DNA of 64,000 nucleotides from Datnioides undecimradiatus (lineage: Eukaryota > Chordata > Actinopteri > Lobotiformes > Datnioididae). Each line of letters begins with the position of its first letter. Position 1 is the stretch's first letter. This document shows, one piece after another, positions 32,201 through 63,700 of this stretch. The DNA is taken from contig WARS01000036.1 of NCBI GenBank assembly GCA_008933995.1, positions 6,548,419-6,612,418 on the forward strand, written 5' to 3'. The translations under genes were made by a program, and so were the position numbers. A model generated the notes under the pieces. That model saw nothing but the letters and a program-made list of their open reading frames with translations, was not told the origin of the DNA and did no database searches.

Positions 32201-35200
32201 TCAGATCATGAAGGAGTGTGTCTGTTTGTAGTGCTTGAGCTGTAGAGAGCAGGGAGACACACAATGAATCGTTTCCTTTAATTAGCTACGGACCAGTGTT
32301 ATCAGCAACTTATCAACAGAATTAAGCAAAACAAGCCTGACTTGATAACAGTCCCTCTGATCACTCACATTGCGGATGGGAGGAGGAGGAGGAGGAGGGT
32401 TGAAGGACTTGGTGCTGAAAGACAAAAGGGAGGCAGTTCAGTTTGAGCTCAGCCAGTCAATAACACATAGCTGCAAGCAAAACAAGTCAGGCTGAGAAAT
32501 AAAAACCTCACCTTTTTGTTTTCTTGTTCTCTGTTCACAGAAACAACAAAGGAGACAAAGTCAAGTTAACATTTCTCATGATCACAATGACAACTGCCTC
32601 ACATTTGTCTCTCCATCTGGTGGCAGTAATTAGTTCCATAGTAATTAGTGCTTTTACTCAAATATGCATTAACATGTTAGTGTCCATGTTTTTGTCCCCC
32701 TGACAAATGTAGGTCTATAGTTCAGTCTCTTTTAGCTCTCCTGAGGGAAACATCTCTCTCTTAAGATGCTAAATGCACCACTGGGTTCATCTAGCTAGTC
32801 GCTAACAGTGTCTGCCAGCTGTTTGGTGCTGAGCAGGTGGATTTTAAAGTGAGGTGAAAACACGATTGATAAGAGCAGTTGCATTGGATGGAAAAGTGTA
32901 AAGTTATAACCAAAACAATGACTTTGCCATAATTTTCCATTATGAACATATACATATATATTGATTAGTACATTTTGCAAATAAGGATTTTGAATGCAAG
33001 ACATTTATTTGTAATGGAGCATATGTATGTATGTATGTAAATATGTGGGTCAGTGATTAGACACACACCTTGAAACTTTAACGTTCTTACTTCTGTTGAT
33101 TTTAACATCATGTTCCTATACTTCAAATGCATTCATTAACACAAACATCTCAGATCTAAAAGTAATGATTGCATGACAGGCCGAAACTGGGGCATCTCGT
33201 TCACGCAAAACACACACACAATCTTACAGGGAGCAGCAACACACTACTCACTCTTGCAGCAGCCTCTGCGTCTGCAGACACAAACACAGATGCAGCAGAG
33301 GAAGACGAGCAGCAGAAAACCTGCAGCTCCTGCCATCAAAATCGTCATATTCAAAGGATCTAGAAGGAGGAGACAGTATTTGCTCAGTCTTTGGTGAGAG
33401 AAGCAGAACAAGTAAACACCAGCGATGAGTTCAGCCAAAACCACTTACACTCAATAACTTTCAGTTGTTTGGCCACACAACTCTTGGGTGCCCCCACACT
33501 GTTGGAGGACTCACAGCGGTACATCCCTGCGTCTGTTTTAGACACACTCTTAAACTTCTGCTCCGGAAAAAAACAAGGTACGAATTGAATAACAGCTGTG
33601 TGTCTGTACACGAGTACTTGCATATATTAGTAAGTTCTCACCAGTGTGCCCTTGTTTGTGTCGATGCTGTACGGAGTGTCTGCTGTGTCAGTCAGAGCTT
33701 TGTTGTCTTTGTACCAGCGGTAGGTGGCAGGTGGCACACTGAGTTTGTCCTTACAGAGCAGCTCCAGCCCTGAGCCCACAAACACAGAGCTTGGCACCTC
33801 ACAGGACGGGACGTGAGGAGGCACTACGGAGGCAGAGAGGAGAAACAGCTGGGGTTAAAGCAAAAAGTGTAAATGGATGTGCAAAAACACTTGAAACACT
33901 TTGGACTTAGAGGAAACTGGTGCATGAGGATTTAAACTCTAGGACCTACCATTTCATTTCATTTATTTGCATGACAAAGAAAATGCTTAGCAGAGGTGAC
34001 TCACAAGTTAAACACCTTGATCACATTCACATGGTGGTAGGCAACTTCCCATATCAAGACCCTTTTTTATATATTGTTTTTGAAAGCAGCACATGCACCT
34101 TGATTTAATATGCAGTGACTTAAAAAATCATTCTTTTAAGTTCAGATCCTGTTGCCGTGTTTTAATTCTTCAGCAATTCAAAAAGAATGTTTGATGTCTC
34201 TTCTTGAACTCACGAATTTAGCTTGAGGGAAAAGGGAGTTGTGTTGCTGCATTTCAGGAGGCAAAAGCTCACACACGGGGGCACCACTTAATGTTCTAAG
34301 GGTTTTCTTACACCCTCACATATACATGCATTCACCCTCATATATGAATATTTACATATTTATTCATTTTCCCACCGTACCAAGGACATTAAGGGTTACA
34401 GTGGCCTCTCCCAGGTTGACATGGTCCTCACTGGCAGTCACCTCACAGCGGTATTCCCCCGAGTCTTTCTGAGTAACTGAGTGTATCGTCAGCGTTGCTC
34501 CCTCTATCTTTGCCCGTCCTATGTAAGAGCCTGAAGTGAATAGTAATGGATAGTTGATAGATGATGGACAAACCATAACAAGGTGCTAAAAAGAAGAATA
34601 AATTATAAAATGAATGAATTAATAAAAATAATGAAGAGATGATGGAAAGAAAGACAGTAAAACAGCTTTTTTCAGTTCGGAGGAGTCGAAAGAATTCATG
34701 CAATAAATGTCTGCTGTGACTTACTTGTAAATTTGTGATTAAAGTAAACAAATGTCACGGCCTTTCCTTTCTTCTTCCACTCGATGCGAGGACTCTGATC
34801 TTTCTCTGTCCTGAACTCACAGGCCAGCACAGCATCTGGAAGGACAGAAAACAGAGCAGGAAAACAAGTCCTCATTATTTGTTGCTAAATATGTTGTTTG
34901 GGCTTCTTTGTCACAACTGTGAAGTGAAAAATCTTCGTTGACTTTCCAAAAAGCTTATTAAATATTTGTTGCTCCTGGCATCTTCATTAAAGAAGACATT
35001 GCCCATGTTATGTTTATCAGTTTATAATCTGCACATATTTGTTTCACATTAGTTTTTTGATTTAACTGATTTTTGCAATGCTAAAATTATAATTCATATC
35101 AATATTAACCATGCTCTTCTTTCATAGTCATATTTAACTACGGTTTTTAATCAGAAGTTGTTCTTTATTCCTATCAGTTGGACTTGGACGGCAAAATTTT

Positions 35201-41142: not shown

Positions 41143-44100
41143 ATGAAGATCAAGACATTACTATTACTCTCACTGAGCTTAGCAGGTAAGAGATTTCATT
41201 ACATTTTTCCAGGAATTTGTTTACCAAGAGGCCGATTTATACTTCAGTTTTCAATGTGTCTGAAAATTTGCTCTGTTGAGTTTAGGGATTGTGGGTTTAG
41301 TCTCTGCAAAGATTAAATCGTTTATTTGCTGTAAGAAGTAAAGTTGAAGCATATCTGCTTGTGTTCTGGTCTCTTGTTGAAGAAAGCCCACATAACTAGT
41401 AATGTCATTTAATCTCTTATCTAATAATTGTTTAATTTCTAAATGTTTAAGATTTGCTATGCTGATGCCACACAGCACATCAACAAATTAACTTTAACTG
41501 CCTTTGTAAAAAAATAAATTAAAAAAACAATGTAACTTTTTTTTCAGATCAATATGGTTAACAATATTCGTATTGCTTTTTTTATCATCATCATTAGCAT
41601 CAGTATACCAACATGATTGTGGTTGCTCTTGCTTTTTGAAATTGTGGCCACAGACATACTTTGATTACTGAATTTAGGGTTCATGGTACCAGAGCCTCCC
41701 TTTGAAGTGACTCTTGACATTTCTTGTTGGAAAGTCATTGAAATGAATACAAAGAGACACAAAACAACCTCAAGGAGTCAATCAGGGGTGTCATGCTCCT
41801 GTTAAAGGGCACAGATGTATTATATTGAAATCCACCTTTGGGTGCAGGTATGTAAAACTGCTTTATTGTGTCAGCACATTCATTTGCGTTTTCTCTTTGC
41901 AGTGGTTCTGGGAATGCCACCTTTTGCTCCAGGTGTGGCACAAAATTCTGTCCTAGCTGAGGATGACCAGAACCTAGATTTGCAGGAAAAACTGCAAAGT
42001 CAGAGTATGGTGGAACTAGAGATTAAAGTGAAGCCAGGAGTTAGAGCAGTGCAAGAGGGTGGAGCACAGCAAGCAGTTATGGTGGAGCCAGAGGATAAGG
42101 TGGAGCCTGAGGTTAAAGCAGAACCAGAGGATAAGGTGGAGCCTGAGGTTAAAGCAGAACCGGAGATTAAGGTGGAGCCAGAGGTTAAAGCAGAACCAGA
42201 GGATAAGGTGGAACCAGAGGTTAAAGCAGAACCAGAGATTAAGAAGGAGCCTGAGGTTAAAGTAGAAGCAGAGGTTAAGATGGAAGCAGAGGTTAAGGTG
42301 GAACCAGATATTAAAGTGGAGCCAGAGGTTAAAGTGGAGCCAGAGGTTAAGGTGGAGCCAGAGGTTAAAGCAGAACCAGAGGATAAGGTGGAACCTGAGG
42401 TTAAAGCAGAACCAGAGATTAAGGTGGAGCCTGAGGTTAAAGCAGAACCAGAGATTAAGGAGGAGCCAGAGGTTAAAGTAGAAGCAGAGGTTAAGGTGGA
42501 ACCAGAGATTAAAGTGGAACCTGAGGTTAAGGTGGAACCAGATCTTAAAGCAGAACCAGAGATTAAGGTGGAGGTTAAAGCAGAGGATAAGGTGGAGCCA
42601 GAGGTTAAAGTGGAGCCAGAGGTTAAAGTGGAGCCAGAGGTTAAGGTGGATCTAGAGACTAATGGTAAGCCAAAAGTTTTGGCTGAATTAGAGATCCAAG
42701 ATAACCCAGACTTTAATGTGGAATCAGATGTTAAGGTGGAGCAAGATGTTCAAGAGGAGATAGAGACTGAAATGGCGCCCATGTTTAATGAGGAGCAAGA
42801 GGCTCAAGGTCAGAAGTTTGACGAGAGGCACGTTGACATGGAGCAACAACTTAACATGGTGGGAGAGCCAATCATGGAACTAGAGCCACTGGATGAATAC
42901 AACATGTTTGGAGATGAACCAAGTGATACAGAGCTGTCAGAGATGGAAAAATCTGTAAGGGCAGCTTTTCAGAACAAAGATCCTGTCATTCAACCTCTGT
43001 CAGAGGAGGAGGAGCTTATGAAGGAGAGAGCCTATGATTTAGATGAAGAACCAATAATGGAACTGGAGCCCCTGGATGAAGGCAGCGTGTTTGGAGATGA
43101 ACCAAGCCATACAGCGCTGTTAGAGGTGGAAAAGACTTTAAGGGCAGCTTTTCAGAACAAAGATCCTGCCATTCAACCTCAGCCAGACGAGGAGCTTATG
43201 AAGGAGAAACCCTACGTTTTAGATGAAGAACCAATCATGGAACTGGAGCCTGAGACAAGGCAACAGCAGGTTGTGTCAGATGCTGCAATCATGGACGAAG
43301 GGCCAGCATTGGACATCAATGGGCAGAAGATACTACCTTTGGAGGAGTATTTTCCCAATGAAGAGGCTAGAAATGGGATGAAACAAGGCACTCTCAGAGT
43401 GGAGGGGTCAGAGTATATAGAGGAACAAGAGAAAGACTTTGCTGGGGAGGAGTACCTTTCTCCAGTGTTTGGCACACTGCCCTTTGAGGAGCCAGCAATG
43501 GAGGACAGTCCTGTGCCTGATGGAAGTGTTCAGAGTGGTGTGTTGCCTAAAAGAGAAAGTAGGGGATTGATGAGCCAGGGAGCTCAAACCCCTGTAGAAA
43601 CACCAATACAAGACAGACAAGGTAAAATGAAAAAATTCACAAACACACCTTTGAAAACTTTTGCTTGTCCACATGTACACTGATCTTGAATGTCACACCA
43701 AACACCAAATTTGAAAAATCTGTATACCATAAAATACAGAAAGATGTCTCTGATAATGATGTGCCAAACCAGCATTGTATGAACTTATTTGAAGAATTGG
43801 AAAAGATGTTTGTTTATTTGTCTTGGTAGCTCCACTGTAGCTTTAAGGTTAGGGAAAAATTGTGGTCAAATTATCCATAATATATATCCTCTGCTTCCAT
43901 CATACTTTCTATAGCTCATAGAAACAACTGATGCTGTCTTTCAACAGTCTTGTGTTTCCAGTGTAAAAGAAGGGTTTCTGTGTAAAAATTACTTTTTTGT
44001 GGACAAATATTTTAGAAGTTTTGAAAGGACACATGAAGACAACATGAACAACGAAGCACAGAAAATAAGCACTCTAAATCCCTAAGAGCTGGGTAGGATA

Positions 44101-45474
44101 TGCTTCGATGCTAAGGCTAGGAGAAACAAACCACAAAGATAATGGCTCGGAAAATGGGAAGGAGAAAAAAACAGAAGAGTATGGAAAGGAAGGATATGAG
44201 GAAATTTCTATACCAATAAACATAACAGAAACATTTTATATAACTATCACTATAACTATAAATGCACATCTATTGATAATTATTGTTTGGAATTCCTGTA
44301 TTTTATAAAATGTCTTCTGTTGCTCAATATTAGGCTTCAGCAGTCTGAGTAAGACAAATCAAGTGTATCTTTGTTCAGACATTAGGACTTACAAAAGTGG
44401 GATCTGGATAAAAGATTGTTATTTCGAAGATACATTTTTGAACTGCTGAATTCTCAGATTAGCTTAAGATGAGCTCCTAAAGTAAGTAACAGAGGTATTT
44501 TGATGAATGCAAGGATTGTGGAGTTTTTCTCCCATAACTTTCACTGGAATCATGATACCAAGTTTGGACAAGAGAAATCATTACAGTGAAAAAAAAAGTG
44601 AAACTTCCTGAAAGAGAAACAAGACTGAATGTTGTAATTTCAACCCTTAGCCACCAGGCAGGGCTATTGTCCTGGTGTGGTGCTTGAGGGGAAGTGTTAC
44701 CAGTTCTTCAAAGAGCCAAAGAGGGCTGCAGATGCAGAGGTATTTACATTTTCTCCACTGACGTTGATAAAGTTAGACTTCTTTAGCAACACACAGCTGA
44801 TAATATTCAATAATCCTACTGCTGCTATTTCTATTTCATTGCAGTTCTTCTGCCAAGACCATTTCCCAGGTGGCCACTTGGCTTCCATTACGAGCCAAAA
44901 GATTCACAGAGAGATGATGAGCATGATGCTGCAGCACAACAGGGCATACACACGCACCTGGATTGGAGGACTACGATATCTGGAGGTGTGTATATTCAGT
45001 CAGGGAGTACAGGAGTCATAAATCTGTGGAATACAAAAATGAGTCATTTACCCTGATCACAAATCCAACACTGTGAGAGGGGTTCATTCCATTTTTCTGT
45101 GTTTGTATCTGGATCACAACAAAAATGAATAATTCCTCCACCTGACTTAATCTGTTGTCTCTCAGACTGGTCGCTTTATCTGGTTGGATGGATCCCACTG
45201 GGGCTATGCTGATTGGCTGCCAGGGGAGCCCAATAACACAGCAGGAGTGGAGGCCTGTTTGGAAGTGCTGGCAATTGGTAGGCAGATTATTGTTTGAAGC
45301 TGAACTCAAGGCACATGGATACTTTTATGTTGCAGCAAATCTGAATATATATAACACTTACTGTGCCACTGTGGATCTGATCTGTGGTTTGTTTGTCCTG
45401 CAGGAAACGGGAAGTTCAATGATTTCACATGCTGGGAACCTCAGGCTTTCATCTGCTCCTACCCTTTTCACTGA
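41143..45474 (+). CDS. secreted C-type lectin with long acidic PEVK-like repeat region
   Basis: Coding exons: 41,143-41,185; 41,903-43,621; 44,651-44,739; 44,845-44,985; 45,166-45,277; 45,404-45,474. Phases chain exactly, giving 724 residues. A signal peptide (MKIKTLLLLSLSLAVVLG) is followed by an acidic region. Residues about 75-264 are some thirty hexamers of the V-E-P-E-V-K type, and 336-456 are two copies of a 61-residue unit plus the start of a third. Residues about 588-724 are one long-form C-type lectin domain with six cysteines, W656-IGGL, and the calcium ligands E685, N687 (EPN, mannose type), E693, N707 and D708 (FND instead of WND), ending FICSY. It should be a secreted, calcium-dependent sugar binder. 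An acidic propiece plus lectin domain recalls eosinophil major basic protein (PRG2/PRG3), which lacks this calcium site. The gene is not recognised by name. A 15-nt in-frame micro-exon at 44,334-44,348 is possible. Confidence 0.82.
42082..42651 (+). repeat. 18-bp coding minisatellite (V-E-P-E-V-K hexamers)
   Basis: About thirty tandem 18-bp units of the form GTGGAGCCAGAGGTTAAA lie inside the second coding exon of the lectin gene. Variation is mostly at the first position (V or A) and the fifth (V, D or I), and part of the array repeats as 36-bp pairs (a KAEPED- or KAEPEI-type unit followed by a KVEPEV-type unit). One unit near 42,565-42,590 is shortened in frame. Near-identity between units at the DNA level implies recent expansion. 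Confidence 0.9.
42865..43251 (+). repeat. 61-residue coding tandem repeat
   Basis: Two copies start at 42,865 and 43,048 (183 and 180 bp). Each begins with the codons for EPIMELEPLDE and contains an FGDEPS motif, an RAAFQNKDP motif and an EEL-MKE motif. A third copy starts at 43,228 but ends after EPIMELEP. The copies are clearly homologous yet diverged, so this duplication is older than the neighbouring hexamer array. Confidence 0.88.
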
Positions 45475-45696: not shown

Positions 45697-45702
45697 AATA
45701 AA
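45697..45702 (+). terminator. poly(A) signal of the lectin gene
   Basis: AATAAA 223 bp after the lectin stop codon, within CTGTAAATAAAGTC. Its position and context fit the end of the transcript. Confidence 0.55.
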
Positions 45703-50775: not shown

Positions 50776-52676
50776 ATGGAGAGTTTGCCTACAGACAGCC
50801 AACCTGTCCGACAGAAGTATCTTGGAAAGCAAGAGGAGCTGGATGAAAAAAAACAGGATGGGAAACTAGAGGTGGAGCAGGGGACTGATGAGGGTAACTC
50901 TGGATTACAGTCCATCACTTCATAATGCATGTACTGCAATATACACTGCCATTACATGTGTAGTTTCTCTCCTGAGGAGGGGAGCAGATGGACATCATTC
51001 AGATTTTTGTAACACTCACTGCTGTAAGACTCATCCTGCAACACTTTTCTCTGCAGTGTTAACAGACCAGAAGGTGATGGCAGGAGAGGCTCTGGACAGG
51101 AGAAACATCTGGGAGCCAAGCGTTTACTACGCACTGGGAAAGGAATCCTTTTATTTTGCTGGTCATGACATCAGCATCCGTGAGTCTATGGATACCTATG
51201 GTGCTCTGATCTGGCCTGGGGTACGTCCAGTCATGACTGTGTATATCTGTTGTTGTTGTTGTTGCTGTTGTTTGTTGTTAATGTGATGATGTGTATTTAT
51301 TTTGTAGGCAATCGCTTTGTGCCAGTTCTTGGAGAACAACCAGCAACAAGTGAGCCTGATGGACAAGGCGGTGCTGGAGATTGGAGCTGGGACTGGCCTG
51401 CTCTCAATAGTGGCCAGTCTGCTGGGTAAGCATGTGATAATGAAATCCATTTTCACTTTACACAGTATGTACTGTGTGTATGAAACAGTTATGTTCACAC
51501 GTCACCAGTAATTGTTGACACTGAAGTCTGAAGTAGTGCCAACTTTGATGCCATCACATGCAAATGCTGACAGAACAGTCATGATACTATTTAATGATAA
51601 ATGCCATGAAGGGTTTAACCCCATGGGTGCATAAATATGCACTGAATATTTTATGAACATCTGCTCATTTTTTGTGCAACATGTATATCAAGGGTCACTA
51701 AAACACTGCGACCCCTTGTCTGAGGACCATGACTATCCACCCACACCAACATTTTTGCATTGTAAACAGGCCAGCAGTTGTTAAGATATCTTACACCACA
51801 AAGTGACGTTTCCATCCTTTAACCCCTCCGTTAATAATGCAGAGGACAAATTAGTGTCATTTGATTCTCAATGAAATAAAACATCTATCCAGATTGCCGT
51901 TCTATAAAATAGTTTTCCTTTGTTTTCTCTTCATTGCTCCATCTCTATCAATAGCCAGGGAAATCCTAGAAGTTCCTCTATTAAAAGCATTTCAATACAA
52001 GAACTACAGATCCTCCCAACTAAACGTCTTTGAACACTGGTCAGATTGTATTCTGTCTGAGCAAGCAGCTGGTCTGGCCAGATTATTGCCTTTTGGCTTC
52101 AAGGGAAGTCACACATTAAACTTGGTGGTTGGTTAAATGGTTGTTGTTCAGCATACTTTAGCATGTTAGCATGCTAACAGTCGCTAATTGGCACACAGAC
52201 TACAGCAGCAGCTGAAAGGGGCCTATCTATCATTCAGTCTGTATTTTAGTTGCCTTGTTGCTCTGTACTCTTTTTCAGGTGCTTGGGTGACAGCTACTGA
52301 CCTGCCAGACATCTTGTCTAATCTGACCTTTAACCTCATGCGGAACACTAAAGGCCGTTCCCGCTACACCCCTCAGGTGGCTGCCCTCACCTGGGGTCAG
52401 CACCTGGAGCGAGACTTTCCCTACCCGTCCTACCACTACGACTATGTTCTGGCAGCTGATGTGGTCTATCATCACGACTGCCTCGAGGAACTGCTGGGAA
52501 CCATGCGTCATTTTTGCAGACCAGGAAGCCGGACAACGCTGTTGTGGGCCAACAAGCTCCGGTTCCAGTCAGACTTGAGGTTCACAGAGTGCTTTAAGGA
52601 CAGTTTCAACACCACGCTGCTTGCTGAGCTCCCACAGCAGGAAGTGAGGATATACAAGGCCACAGCCAAGGAGTGA
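50776..52676 (+). CDS. mettl21c: METTL21C-type protein-lysine methyltransferase
   Basis: Class I SAM-dependent methyltransferase of the METTL21 family. METTL21C is enriched in vertebrate skeletal muscle and trimethylates lysines on partners such as p97/VCP. Coding exons: 50,776-50,893; 51,057-51,220; 51,308-51,425; 52,279-52,676. Borders are GT/AG and phases match, giving 265 residues, the usual size. Visible features are FAGHDISIRES and YGALIWPG (family-specific N-terminal part), SAM motif I EIGAGTG (residues 118-124), post-I ATDLP (139-143) and the family signature AADVVYHH (192-199), ending in a beta-rich VRIYKA tail. The first 35 residues are charged and poorly conserved. METTL21E, a close tandem paralogue in mammals, is an alternative label. 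It is convergent with grk1, whose stop lies about 1.07 kb away. Confidence 0.85.
52150..52200. repeat. short GCATGCTAAC repeat fragment
   Basis: TTTAGCATGTTAGCATGCTAAC lies in the last intron of the methyltransferase gene. It is a fragment of the same dispersed motif family as 31,165-31,285. Confidence 0.4.
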
Positions 52677-53750: not shown

Positions 53751-57464
<3,714 letters not shown>

Positions 57465-57741
57465 GGTGAGGGTAGGTGACTGTTAGGCAGCGCAGAGAGG
57501 AGACATTGCAAAGAAAAAACAAAGAGGAAACGCTGTTCACTAACGTACAGCAGGGGTGAGGCAGTAAGAAGGTGAAGCAGGGCGTGAGCCAACAGATCAC
57601 AGAGCAGTGGCAGAGAAATGGGAACTTGAGATTGGTGTCTCAACTGGATCCCAGCACACTTTGAGCAGCGGCCCACCCTCATTCACACACACGCAGACAC
57701 ACACTCAGGCGCATACACACACCTGAGTCAACACCTTTTGG

Positions 57742-60715: not shown

Positions 60716-63700
60716 GGTATGCCACCAGCTGGCAATGCTCTATATTTGACAATCCTATGAATATGTGACGGTGCACCTTGGTCAGCTCTGCTTCTGATAT
60801 CACTCATGTAAAATAATTAGGTTAAAATATAATATAACCTATATAATATACTTCATATACTGCAAACAGCCTGAGTGCACAGTATACTGATCAAGTGATA
60901 ATGTGCAGAATCTAGCTGAGATCTAACTGGATCACTGTAGCTGCTAACTCCTTAATTAATTTATTTATATTGGCCAGTCACCTACCATCCAACTATTCAA
61001 AATGAGCATGTTGTACACAGGGGGGCTGTGGCACTGACCTATAACATAGGGCTCCAGAGCTTTGGGCACCAGGCTACGGGCAACCTTCAGATCCTCTGGA
61101 GAACACTTTCCCACCTCCAAACCACAGGCCATGCCCATACGCTTCAGCACCTCGATGTCATCGTGGATTTCAAACATGCTGTCAAAATTGAACAAATACT
61201 CGAACCTGTATGCAAGAGAGAAGGAACAAGACACATAAGAAGGGCTTACTTCAATCATCAATTTAACAGAAAATTACTTGTTACCAATCAATTTAAATTG
61301 GGTCAATGAGTTTTGGCTAAAAGACAGTGGCTTTTAAATAAGCAACAGCACTGTAGCAGTCCAAACGAGATGTGATTAGAGCACAGTATTAGCACTAGCA
61401 TTAGCATTTTTGAATTAGCATTTAACAGGAGAATATTACCCAACATCCAGTTCTTGATTGTGCGTAAACATTTGTTCAATATAGAAAGCTGATTAGGCTC
61501 ATAGGGTTTAAATACAAGTATGTATCAGTAAATATCACAGTAAATGTGACTGGAGATGTTGCTAAAATTTCTGATAATCTGTCCTGGTGGCAGCACGAGG
61601 ATAAAGTCTTAAAACCAAACCCTGGGGGATACTGTGGCAAAGCAGCAGTGTCTGCCCCAAAGCTCACCTGCAAAGACTGCCAAAAACCCATCTGTGACAC
61701 AGGAGGAGAACCGCCCAAATACAATACCGCAATATCAAATACTGCTGTTAGGCCCAATAAATACAAAATGACAGATCTCTACATCTGCAGCTGGTAAAAT
61801 TTCAATTGAGACCATGAGAAAATAATTTCCAGTGCAGTACAGTTTATGGAAAATGGACTGAAGGTTATCAAAACACCCTGTGCACTATCACTGTTTAAAC
61901 AAGTCACTGTAAAGTAACCATTAATAAAACTTTGGAAAACAAACAGAGTTCAGAAATAGGCCTGTTGTTCTCTGGGAGGGTAGGGTCCAATATGATTTCA
62001 ATAAAGGCTGAGCAACCTGCTTAAACTGACCAGGGACACGCTCCATACTACACACACTACATAAACAGGATTCTTAAAGTGCTTTATGAGGTTTTCATTT
62101 GTCCTAACATAACTGCAACATCATCTACAGATACAGGATAAAAAGGAGTCCAGAGTGAGATGGTTTGTGGAATCATTAACGAGTAAACTGACACAGCAAG
62201 AAGCAGTGACCATTAAATGATTGGACATGGGTCTTCTAAACAATATCTAGTCTCACATCATGGTATTAGTATAATTGAAGGCCATAAAAAACCTAAAGAT
62301 TACAATATCCTCACATCCAGTACTGGAGGTAACCAGCCAGGGAACATAAAACTTAAGGGATCGCTCTCATTCATTTAGCCCTGGCTGCTTTGTAGCAACA
62401 CTTCTTTAAAACATATGCATTAAAAGAAAAAAGGTTTAGTCAGTGGACTATTCATGTGCCTCCTGTGCTTATACTTTACAAATGAAAAAGTGCTGAATGA
62501 CAGTTTGCTTGTATCAAAACATGAACATATTTTTACCTTGCATGCATATAGCGTAAGCCCAATAAGTCCATTCATATATTAGCCATAATTCTTACGCATT
62601 CCTACACCAGTGGAAAGGTCTTACATTCAGTGTCAGCTGCTCAATGGCTACGCGCTGAACTGTTGAGCCATCTTCTCAAGAAACTATGACTTTATCACAC
62701 ACATCCAACCTTAATACTGGTAACTTGGCAAACAAGATTTCCAAACAACTTTTGGTTTACATGCCAAGAGCTGCAAAACGTCTTGTCAACAATTTATTTA
62801 TACTTATCTAAATAGACACTAAATTCATATATTTGGGTACTGAGCGACATTTCTATTAACTCAGGTTCCTATGGATCGTTATCCTTACAATCAAACTTCA
62901 CGATTGAATGTACGAATAATAGACTAAATAGACTAAATGTATACTTACAAGATGACTACATTAAAACATTTGGGCATTTCATATGTCTCCATCACTACAT
63001 CTCTGTAGATCATTTAAAGAACATGAACCTGAAGAAGTACAACTTCTCACATCATGGTGTTGAAACAGTCACGTACTTGTCATTAGAGATGCTGCAGTCG
63101 ATGACAGTTTTTTTGCTGGTGTTGACGATGATGAAGGGAAGGTGGATGATGGAGTTGGGAGGTGGAGGTCTATTTGCCTGCTGCTCTGTCTGTCTGTTTC
63201 GCTGAACAAGGTTCTTAAAAGCTATTTGCTGCAAGACAAGATAAAAGAAAGTTGAAGCAGCTTTTGGGAGCTTTCACATTAAACTGATTACAGATTCAGC
63301 ATGTCAAATCAAAACACTTCTGCTACATTGTTCAACCATGTTCAAGCAAGATTTATACTGTGTTGTCAAGACAGTCCCACTATGTGTCATACCTCCACCA
63401 TTGAACTAAACGGATGTGATTGATATTATAAATTATGTGATGTATATATAAAGTAGATTTATTGAAGAGCGTACTTGGCGAAATAAAGCTGATTCTGATT
63501 AAGCTGTGTTATGCATTAATTATATAACTCAAGTAATCATGTGTAATTTTATGCTACATTTATTTATCTACATGTTCATTATTGAGGTTGTAGCATATGC
63601 TGGTGTTGGTGCTGTATTTCATTATATTTAGGTGTTTGTAATATTCTGCCAATCTCATATATGTAAATAAGGGGGACACACAATTAGATATTCCTCTCAA

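What the first reader, a model, noticed from the sequence alone, without database searches (positions are those of the whole stretch)
42082..42651. PEVK-like hexamer array fused to a C-type lectin
One exon encodes about thirty V-E-P-E-V-K-type hexamers between a signal peptide and a calcium-type lectin domain. The composition resembles the PEVK spring of titin (Pro, Glu, Val, Lys), almost certainly by convergence. A long, negatively charged, Pro-spaced extended stalk on a secreted lectin could space or cluster the sugar-binding head, bind cations or matrix, or neutralise a basic partner. I do not know a described protein with this architecture; automatic annotation may label it neurofilament-like or titin-like.
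Basis: partly seen in the sequence, partly recalled or inferred. Interest (0 to 1): 0.78.

Follow-up and report, generated by a model that had tools for sequence, protein, structure and literature searches.

The report
Fish lectin with long acidic propiece
A fish gene appears to make a secreted lectin-type protein carrying a very long, negatively charged, repeat-built leader piece, a supersized version of the acidic leader found on eosinophil granule lectins, and a sister gene in the same fish carries a leader built from a completely different repeat.

Summary
Window 42082-42645 (+) encodes 188 residues in one open frame: 30 V-E-P-E-V-K-type hexamers plus two tetramers. A six-exon GT-AG model (41143-45474) joins a signal-peptide exon, this 1,719-nt exon and four exons for a C-type lectin domain (CTLD): 724 aa. 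The array is part of a 569-residue, Cys-free, predicted disordered propiece of net charge about -99, which also holds two 61-residue repeats. The architecture has precedent: acidic neck, CTLD intron positions and Gly in W-I-G-G match published marks of the eosinophil major basic protein-like group (XII), known from Fugu (EMBPL). PEVK likeness is compositional. Two things are new to me: the propiece is far longer than the published 30-residue Fugu neck, and the same genome holds a sister gene with matching CTLD introns whose propiece is built of 13 unrelated 14-mers; seven other CTLD loci checked have no such array upstream. Against mammalian MBP: the head is neutral (pI 6.3), keeps an EPN motif, and I saw no shared synteny, so I do not call it an orthologue. 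Best explanation: a disordered acidic propiece that keeps the precursor soluble and packs granule cargo. No transcript evidence was available.

The parts
41143..41185 (+). Exon 1, start codon and most of the signal peptide, ends in phase 1
   Evidence: GT donor at 41186, open frame; signal peptide judged by eye, no predictor run
41903..43621 (+). Exon 2, 1719 nt (multiple of 3, phase 1-1), encodes nearly the whole acidic propiece
   Evidence: AG acceptor / GT donor, no stop in frame
42082..42645 (+). Hexamer array, aa 75-262: 30 hexamers + 2 tetramers of V/A-E-P-E-V/I/D-K type
42864..43250 (+). Second repeat in the same exon: two 61-aa units (EPIMELEPLDE...AAFQNKDP...) and a partial third
   Evidence: (families D3, D4)
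43549..43554 (+). Lys-Arg (aa 564-565), the only dibasic pair of the propiece outside the array; candidate cleavage site 22 residues before exon 3 (inferred)
44651..44739 (+). Exon 3, start of CTLD (Cys 594, 603)
44845..44985 (+). Exon 4, CTLD with Cys 620 and W-I-G-G (44959-44970)
45166..45277 (+). Exon 5, CTLD with E-P-N motif (45226-45234) and Cys 695
45404..45474 (+). Exon 6, CTLD end with F-N-D, Cys 711, Cys 719, F-I-C-S-Y-P and stop
45697..45702 (+). AATAAA polyadenylation-type signal downstream of the stop
   Evidence: read; not tested

Best explanation
This is a teleost member, or very close relative, of the eosinophil major basic protein-like lectins (CTLD group XII): a secreted precursor made of signal peptide, long acidic propiece and one CTLD. 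Shown here by computation: the architecture, the acidity, the predicted disorder, the CTLD intron positions, and a sister gene with the same plan but unrelated repeats. Inferred: the precursor is stored in granules of an eosinophil-like cell. Its roughly -99 propiece is a disordered polyanion that keeps the protein soluble on its way to the granule and condenses with basic granule cargo (RNases, peroxidase, histone-like proteins) in trans rather than with its own head, which is neutral. A protease then frees the lectin head, possibly at Lys-Arg 564-565, leaving an EPN-type, probably Ca-dependent lectin to act after degranulation. The hexamers matter as a cheap way to lengthen a charged, proline-spaced chain: what selection keeps is charge, length and disorder, not a sequence motif.
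For: In-phase six-exon model; Lectin_C hit. Propiece 569 aa, 62 K+R, 161 D+E, no Cys, on the disordered side of a charge-hydropathy plot; AlphaFold2 single-sequence model of the exon 2 product: mean pLDDT 41.9, no secondary structure in the array (weak evidence without an alignment). Published marks of group XII: acidic neck, same CTLD introns as mammals, Gly at the fourth WIGL position; Fugu EMBPL has a neutral head, pI 7.1 (PMC514892, passages). The same paper gives the intron places (for AFP-like genes, shared with group XII) as upstream of C1, downstream of WIGL and between C2 and C3; here they fall before Cys 620, after WIGGLRYLE and between Cys 695 and 711. Sister gene at G000:C486:1628192-1631922 (-): signal intron in phase 1 and CTLD introns in phases 0, 0, 1, as in the window gene; exon 5 counterpart 112 nt in both; CTLD 35% identical (E 6e-30 for a single comparison); ICSYP ending; propiece pI 4.67 with 13 tandem 14-mers. 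0 of 7 other CTLD loci have an array of 150 nt or more (period 9 or more) in about 9.5 kb upstream; the window gene and the sister do. Array substitutions favour synonymous sites in this frame only: 45 of 74 cells against 25.3 expected, 0 of 5000 draws as high; N/S per site 0.18 in frame, 1.26 and 1.81 in the other frames. Mammalian precedent for a protective acidic pro-part: PMC4751725. A zebrafish lectin that its authors place in the same protein family as MBP marks eosinophils: eslec, PMC10821951 (passages).
Against: The head is neutral (pI 6.31), unlike mammalian MBP (pI above 11, PMC4751725). No eosinophil major basic protein is among the best 60 PDB sequences listed for the whole CTLD (189 matched), for its C-terminal half (135 matched) or for the sister CTLD (135 matched); CD23, mannose-receptor-type, snake-venom lectins, collectins and type II antifreeze proteins are. 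Neighbours are JAM-, METTL21C-, GRK1- and DP1-like, not the human chromosome 11 neighbours of PRG2/PRG3 as I recall them. Gly in WIGG and the intron positions are shared with antifreeze-type fish lectins, so only the acidic neck separates the groups. The sister differs in exon plan: no intron between propiece and CTLD, and two introns inside the propiece that the window gene lacks; its propiece is far less charged (29 K+R, 47 D+E in 303 residues). The selection signal shrinks if variants are counted once: 5 of 13 distinct variants synonymous; between the two 148-nt copies 14 of 20 differing bases are in codons that change the residue. Expression, storage, cleavage and binding partners are not shown.
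Confidence: 0.5

Rival explanations
1. Uncleaved stalk: the array stays attached and works as a long, charged, extended tether that spaces or clusters the lectin head, like a mucin or aggrecan-type arm.
For: Pro in most hexamers, predicted disorder, no Cys in the propiece, sister gene keeps a stretch of similar length (182 against 188 aa) with unrelated sequence.
Against: No second domain above cut-off in the two pieces scanned, exon 2 and the CTLD; a dibasic pair sits just before the CTLD; in the nearest described group the acidic part is a pro-part (PMC4751725).
Confidence: 0.22
2. Mineral or cation matrix protein: an acidic disordered chain plus CTLD that binds calcium or mineral, as in otolith, eggshell or stone-associated CTLD proteins.
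For: Net charge about -99; the sister CTLD has struthiocalcin-1 (E 8.7e-7) and lithostathine (E 5.5e-5) among its PDB matches, rows within a long list of lectins.
Against: The array has 33 Lys to 68 Asp+Glu, unlike poly-acidic mineral proteins (recalled); many non-mineral lectins match as well or better.
Confidence: 0.1
3. Neutral filler: the propiece is a weakly constrained linker in which tandem duplication runs freely; only the CTLD has a function.
For: The two propieces share no convincing similarity (best E 0.51), and neither propiece aa 335-587 nor the sister array has a close copy elsewhere in the genome; only 5 of 13 distinct array variants are synonymous; the 61-aa repeats have diverged mostly by replacements.
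Against: Frame open through a 1719-nt exon; E2 and K6 invariant in 30 of 30 units; synonymous excess by cells in this frame only; both genes keep an acid, Cys-free array of 182-188 residues while 0 of 7 other CTLD loci checked have one.
Confidence: 0.15
4. Annotation artefact: exon 2 belongs to another transcript, or is a cassette that is normally skipped (exon 1 to exon 3 is also in phase), so the main product is a plain signal + CTLD lectin.
For: Exon 2 is 1719 nt, phase 1-1, so skipping keeps the frame.
Against: Consensus-like splice signals on both sides, judged by eye; the sister gene in the same genome has its array in the very exon that begins the CTLD, with no intron between, so there the array-lectin fusion needs no splicing choice.
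Confidence: 0.1

Closest known systems
Fugu EMBPL, 'putative Fugu EMBP-like protein', CTLD group XII (PMC514892, passages)
   Same: Single soluble CTLD with acidic neck, neutral head, Gly in the WIGL motif, CTLD introns at the stated places
   Different: Published Fugu neck is 30 residues with no array mentioned in the passages read; here 569 residues with hexamer array and 61-aa repeats.
Mammalian eosinophil major basic protein precursors PRG2 / PRG3 (proMBP)
   Same: Signal + strongly acidic pro-part + CTLD; Gly in the WIGL motif (PMC514892); pre-sequence (residues 1-87) invisible in a cryo-EM structure (PMC9780223, one passage read)
   Different: Mammalian head strongly basic (pI above 11), precursor near pI 6.2 (PMC4751725); here the head is neutral with EPN and the precursor is very acidic; no shared synteny seen
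Zebrafish eslec (si:dkeyp-75b4.10), eosinophil-specific lectin (PMC10821951, passages)
   Same: [quoted passage not shown] lead for the cell type
   Different: Sequence and propiece not available here; orthology not tested
Type II antifreeze-protein-like fish lectins
   Same: Same CTLD intron positions, often Gly in WIGL (PMC514892); AFPs among PDB matches
   Different: Described as mostly just a CTLD, without long acidic neck
Titin PEVK region
   Same: Rich in Pro, Glu, Val, Lys
   Different: No titin among the array's 7 PDB matches; secreted lectin gene; exact hexamer periodicity; likeness is of composition only

Membership tests
CTLD group XII (EMBP-like, in the sense of Fugu EMBPL) | Acidic neck before a single CTLD in a soluble secreted protein (the defining feature named in PMC514892) | tested here: met
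   Propiece aa 26-587 pI 4.18, 161 D+E to 62 K+R, one CTLD; secretion inferred from the N terminus by eye
CTLD group XII (EMBP-like, in the sense of Fugu EMBPL) | Three CTLD introns: upstream of C1, downstream of WIGL, between C2 and C3 | tested here: met
   Introns before Cys 620, after WIGGLRYLE, between Cys 695 and 711; shared with groups VII and AFP
CTLD group XII (EMBP-like, in the sense of Fugu EMBPL) | Gly at fourth position of WIGL | tested here: met
   WIGG at aa 656-659; also found in most AFPs
CTLD group XII (EMBP-like, in the sense of Fugu EMBPL) | Phylogenetic placement with EMBPs | not testable with these tools
   No eukaryotic protein collection other than PDB; no eosinophil major basic protein in the best 60 rows
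Mammalian-type MBP (PRG2/PRG3 orthologue) | Strongly basic mature CTLD | tested here: not met
   CTLD pI 6.31, 12 K+R to 14 D+E
Mammalian-type MBP (PRG2/PRG3 orthologue) | Conserved neighbourhood | tested here: inconclusive
   JAM-, METTL21C-, GRK1-, DP1-like neighbours; human neighbourhood recalled, fish rearrangements possible
Mammalian-type MBP (PRG2/PRG3 orthologue) | Eosinophil granule storage and pro-part removal | not testable with these tools
   No expression or protein data
Antifreeze-type / group VII single-CTLD lectins | Mostly just a CTLD, no long acidic neck | tested here: not met
   569-residue acidic propiece
Titin PEVK | Sequence relationship to titin PEVK | tested here: inconclusive
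   7 PDB sequences matched the array at E up to 0.01, none titin; PEVK itself may have no PDB entry (recalled), so the test is weak

The most novel reading that the evidence does not exclude
A fish lineage of granule lectins in which the acidic propiece is repeatedly rebuilt by tandem duplication of unrelated short units (VEPEVK hexamers in one gene, IPDGFRQGTEPMVS 14-mers in its sister), so that selection acts on a physical property, length plus negative charge plus disorder, and the propiece serves as a protein-encoded polyanion matrix for basic granule cargo, doing the job that proteoglycan chains do in mammalian granules.
Probability: 0.25. Interest if true: 0.75.

Novelty: new variant of a known kind. 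Interest (0 to 1): 0.5.

Why it matters
If right, it shows that the acidic pro-part of eosinophil-type lectins does not exist only to mask a basic head: this fish keeps and even enlarges it on a neutral head. It also gives a natural experiment, two sister propieces of similar plan but unrelated repeats, for asking which physical features of a disordered polyanion are needed for granule packing. In practice it warns that such genes may be misnamed titin- or neurofilament-like in fish genomes.

Tried and rejected
Titin or muscle PEVK origin: set aside, no titin match (weak test) and a different gene context. Array as a separate gene: not favoured, because exon 2 is in phase with both neighbours; no promoter scan was run. 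Relatives in IMG/VR and in the GTDB genomes by the CTLD: 1 and 7 stretches matched a pattern, none confirmed. A second copy of propiece aa 335-587 in the genome: none besides itself at E up to 1 (6 candidates scored); the first part of the propiece other than the array was not searched. Array-like stretches elsewhere: 20 matches at E up to 0.001, one the array itself; the other 19 are much weaker (best E 1.5e-10), 6 of 19 hold stops, and only 150 of 222 candidates were scored; not followed. The sister array: 16 matches at E up to 1, 3 at its own locus, the best other E 5.8e-6; not followed. An acid repeat at G000:C486:1586407-1586610 near the sister gene: no CTLD near it by tblastn (best E 0.51). 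Pfam hits of exon 2 to Bactofilin (below the curated cut-off) and of the sister propiece to ribosomal S4 and SH3 models (bits above cut-off but no single stretch passing): taken as repeat artefacts. The AlphaFold2 model was not searched for folds because confidence is low. Literature: all 10 paper searches used; no title or abstract start in the listings describes a PEVK-type array on a C-type lectin; most listed papers, among them the nine that hold both PEVK and lectin, were not opened. The paper most likely to describe a zebrafish eosinophil granule marker (PMC11605671) is not held. Opened by passages only: PMC514892, PMC10821951, PMC12683212, PMC8828949, PMC13061325, PMC4751725, PMC3499448, PMC9780223.

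Full report
What is there. The + strand of the window carries a gene model of six exons with GT-AG borders and consistent phases: 41143-41185, 41903-43621, 44651-44739, 44845-44985, 45166-45277, 45404-45474; it reads 724 residues to a stop. Exon 1 gives most of a signal peptide (judged by eye), exon 2 a long acidic stretch, exons 3-6 a C-type lectin domain (Pfam Lectin_C, E 5.3e-13). The finding's array is aa 75-262, 42082-42645: 30 hexamers and two tetramers. It is the strongest tandem repeat of the window (score 687 at period 36). The 36-nt period means that hexamers often alternate as dodecamers.

Exon 2 holds a second repeat: two 148-nt copies 183 nt apart at 86% identity, with a partial third copy, i.e. 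61-residue units. The propiece taken as aa 19 to 587 has 569 residues, 62 Lys+Arg against 161 Asp+Glu, charge about -99 at pH 7.4 and -90 at pH 5.5, no cysteine, and lies on the disordered side of a charge-hydropathy plot. AlphaFold2 on exon 2 alone, without an alignment, gave mean pLDDT 41.9, no structure in the array and helices of low to moderate confidence further on, some of them in the 61-residue units; single-sequence models are weak evidence. The only dibasic pair of the propiece outside the array is Lys-Arg 564-565, 22 residues before exon 3; one Ser-Gly (559-560) with an Asp nearby could be a glycosaminoglycan site (both inferences). Exon 2 is 1719 nt long with phase 1 at both ends, so skipping it would give signal + CTLD in frame.

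Is the array kept as protein? Across 30 hexamers, 45 of 74 departures from the consensus are synonymous, against a mean of 25.3 in 5000 random placements, none of which reached 45; the rate ratio N/S per site is 0.18 in the coding frame, 1.26 and 1.81 in the other two. This counts copies that share ancestry: counted once, 5 of 13 distinct variants are synonymous, which is no strong signal. The sister array gives N/S 0.28, with 12 of 28 distinct variants synonymous. The two 148-nt copies differ at 20 bases in 49 codons, 14 of them in codons that change the residue, so that part drifts more freely.

The head. The CTLD has six cysteines, a W-I-G-G motif, E-P-N and F-N-D. By established knowledge of C-type lectins (recalled) E-P-N with N-D fits a mannose-type, calcium-dependent site; binding was not tested. 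Its pI is 6.31. The best PDB matches are CD23 (E 7e-18), followed by snake-venom lectins, mannose-receptor relatives, collectins and type II antifreeze proteins. No eosinophil major basic protein appears in the best 60 rows, of 189, 135 and 135 sequences matched; lower rows are not shown by the tool.

What kind it is. A survey of Fugu CTLDs (PMC514892; [quoted passage not shown] It gives the intron places, for AFP-like genes, as upstream of C1, downstream of WIGL and between C2 and C3, and says that groups VII, XII and AFP share them. The window gene meets all three marks, but two of the three do not separate group XII from AFP-like lectins. It differs in the size of the neck. It does not meet the mark that gives mammalian MBP its name: that head has a pI above 11 and the precursor about 6.2 (PMC4751725, passages). 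Neighbouring genes are JAM-like, METTL21C-like, GRK1 and DP1-like; PMC4751725 puts the human MBP genes on chromosome 11, and my recollection of that neighbourhood does not include these. I therefore file it as EMBP-like in the Fugu sense and not as an orthologue of PRG2 or PRG3.

The sister gene. The genome that holds the window (581 Mb, 497 contigs) was searched with the CTLD. Of 12 matches at E up to 0.001, four are the window gene's own exons, one is a 45%-identical stretch overlapping the exon 5 region, on contig C486, and seven are CTLDs each matched in one open stretch of 133-185 codons. The C486 locus (L018, minus strand) resolves into seven exons, G000:C486:1628192-1631922, 451 residues: signal exon ending in phase 1 and CTLD introns in phases 0, 0 and 1 as in the window gene, the exon 5 counterpart being 112 nt in both, one GC-AG donor, and an ending ICSYP. 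The plans differ in the propiece: the sister has two introns inside it and none between it and the CTLD. The two heads are 35% identical. Upstream of the sister's head, in the same exon as the head's first part, are 13 tandem 14-mers of the type IPDGFRQGTEPMVS, 182 residues, and two diverged copies further up. The two propieces show no convincing similarity (best BLAST E 0.51). The sister's propiece is acid too (pI 4.67; 29 K+R, 47 D+E in 303 residues, no Cys), though much less charged; its head has pI 4.98. As a control I fetched about 9.5 kb upstream of each of the seven other CTLD matches (two of these stretches overlap): 0 of 7 has a tandem array of 150 nt or more with period 9 or more, while the window gene and the sister do, in frame. 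Arrays behind longer introns would be missed. Counts are lower bounds by the tool's own statement. The sister's array has no close copy elsewhere: 3 of 16 matches lie at its own locus, the best other has E 5.8e-6.

How it most likely works. In mammals the acidic pro-part makes the precursor near neutral and may protect the cell until the basic head is in the granule (PMC4751725). Here the head is neutral, so the huge negative propiece cannot be there for its own head alone. I think that it is a disordered polyanion that keeps the precursor soluble and packs basic cargo of the granule in trans, and that the head is freed later. [quoted passage not shown] in gibel carp ESLEC marks eosinophils (PMC13061325, passages); a small pipefish cluster of 12 cells taken for eosinophils expresses nattectin-annotated lectins (PMC8828949, passages). 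Whether the window gene is the counterpart of any of these was not tested. That two sister genes carry arrays of nearly equal length (188 and 182 residues) and unrelated sequence is the best hint that bulk properties, not motifs, are what counts; it is also compatible with free expansion of an unconstrained linker, which is why confidence is 0.5.

Novelty. Signal + acidic neck + CTLD is known. A neck of this length made of PEVK-like hexamers, and a sister gene whose neck is built from another repeat, I did not find in the listings of ten searches of the open-access library (listed in Tried and rejected); subscription journals and protein databases of fish were out of reach, and automatic annotations of this gene probably exist.

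Noticed in passing
G000:C486:1628192-1631922 (-), L018 3693-7423: Sister gene: signal + propiece with 13 tandem 14-mers (IPDGFRQGTEPMVS type) + CTLD with the same CTLD intron phases; array and first CTLD part share one exon; uses one GC-AG donor.
   Followed up: yes
window 42864-43250: Second, longer repeat in the same exon (61-residue units, two copies and a partial third), predicted weakly helical while the hexamer array is not.
   Followed up: partly
window 41903-43621: The whole propiece exon is phase 1-1 and a multiple of three, so it could be skipped without frameshift, giving a plain signal + CTLD lectin.
   Followed up: no
window 45232-45240: An N-glycosylation sequon (NNT) whose Asn is the Asn of the EPN motif; glycosylation there would be expected to disturb a calcium site.
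   Followed up: no
window 33639-34519 (-), 52299-52673 (+), 55846-57476 (-), 61049-61183 (-): Neighbours: JAM-like Ig protein, METTL21C-like methyltransferase, rhodopsin kinase GRK1, transcription factor DP1-like; only pieces of these genes were tested.
   Followed up: partly
G000:C486:1586407-1586610 (-), L019: Short acidic repeat (TTLEVGQEDG type) beside a longer low-complexity tract, about 42 kb from the sister gene; no CTLD found in the 12 kb or so beyond it or on the sister's side.
   Followed up: partly
G000:C486:1605876-1624382 (+): The sister gene lies just beside the end of a large gene on the other strand that looks like a BEACH-domain (NBEAL-type) protein; named by eye, not tested.
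   Followed up: no
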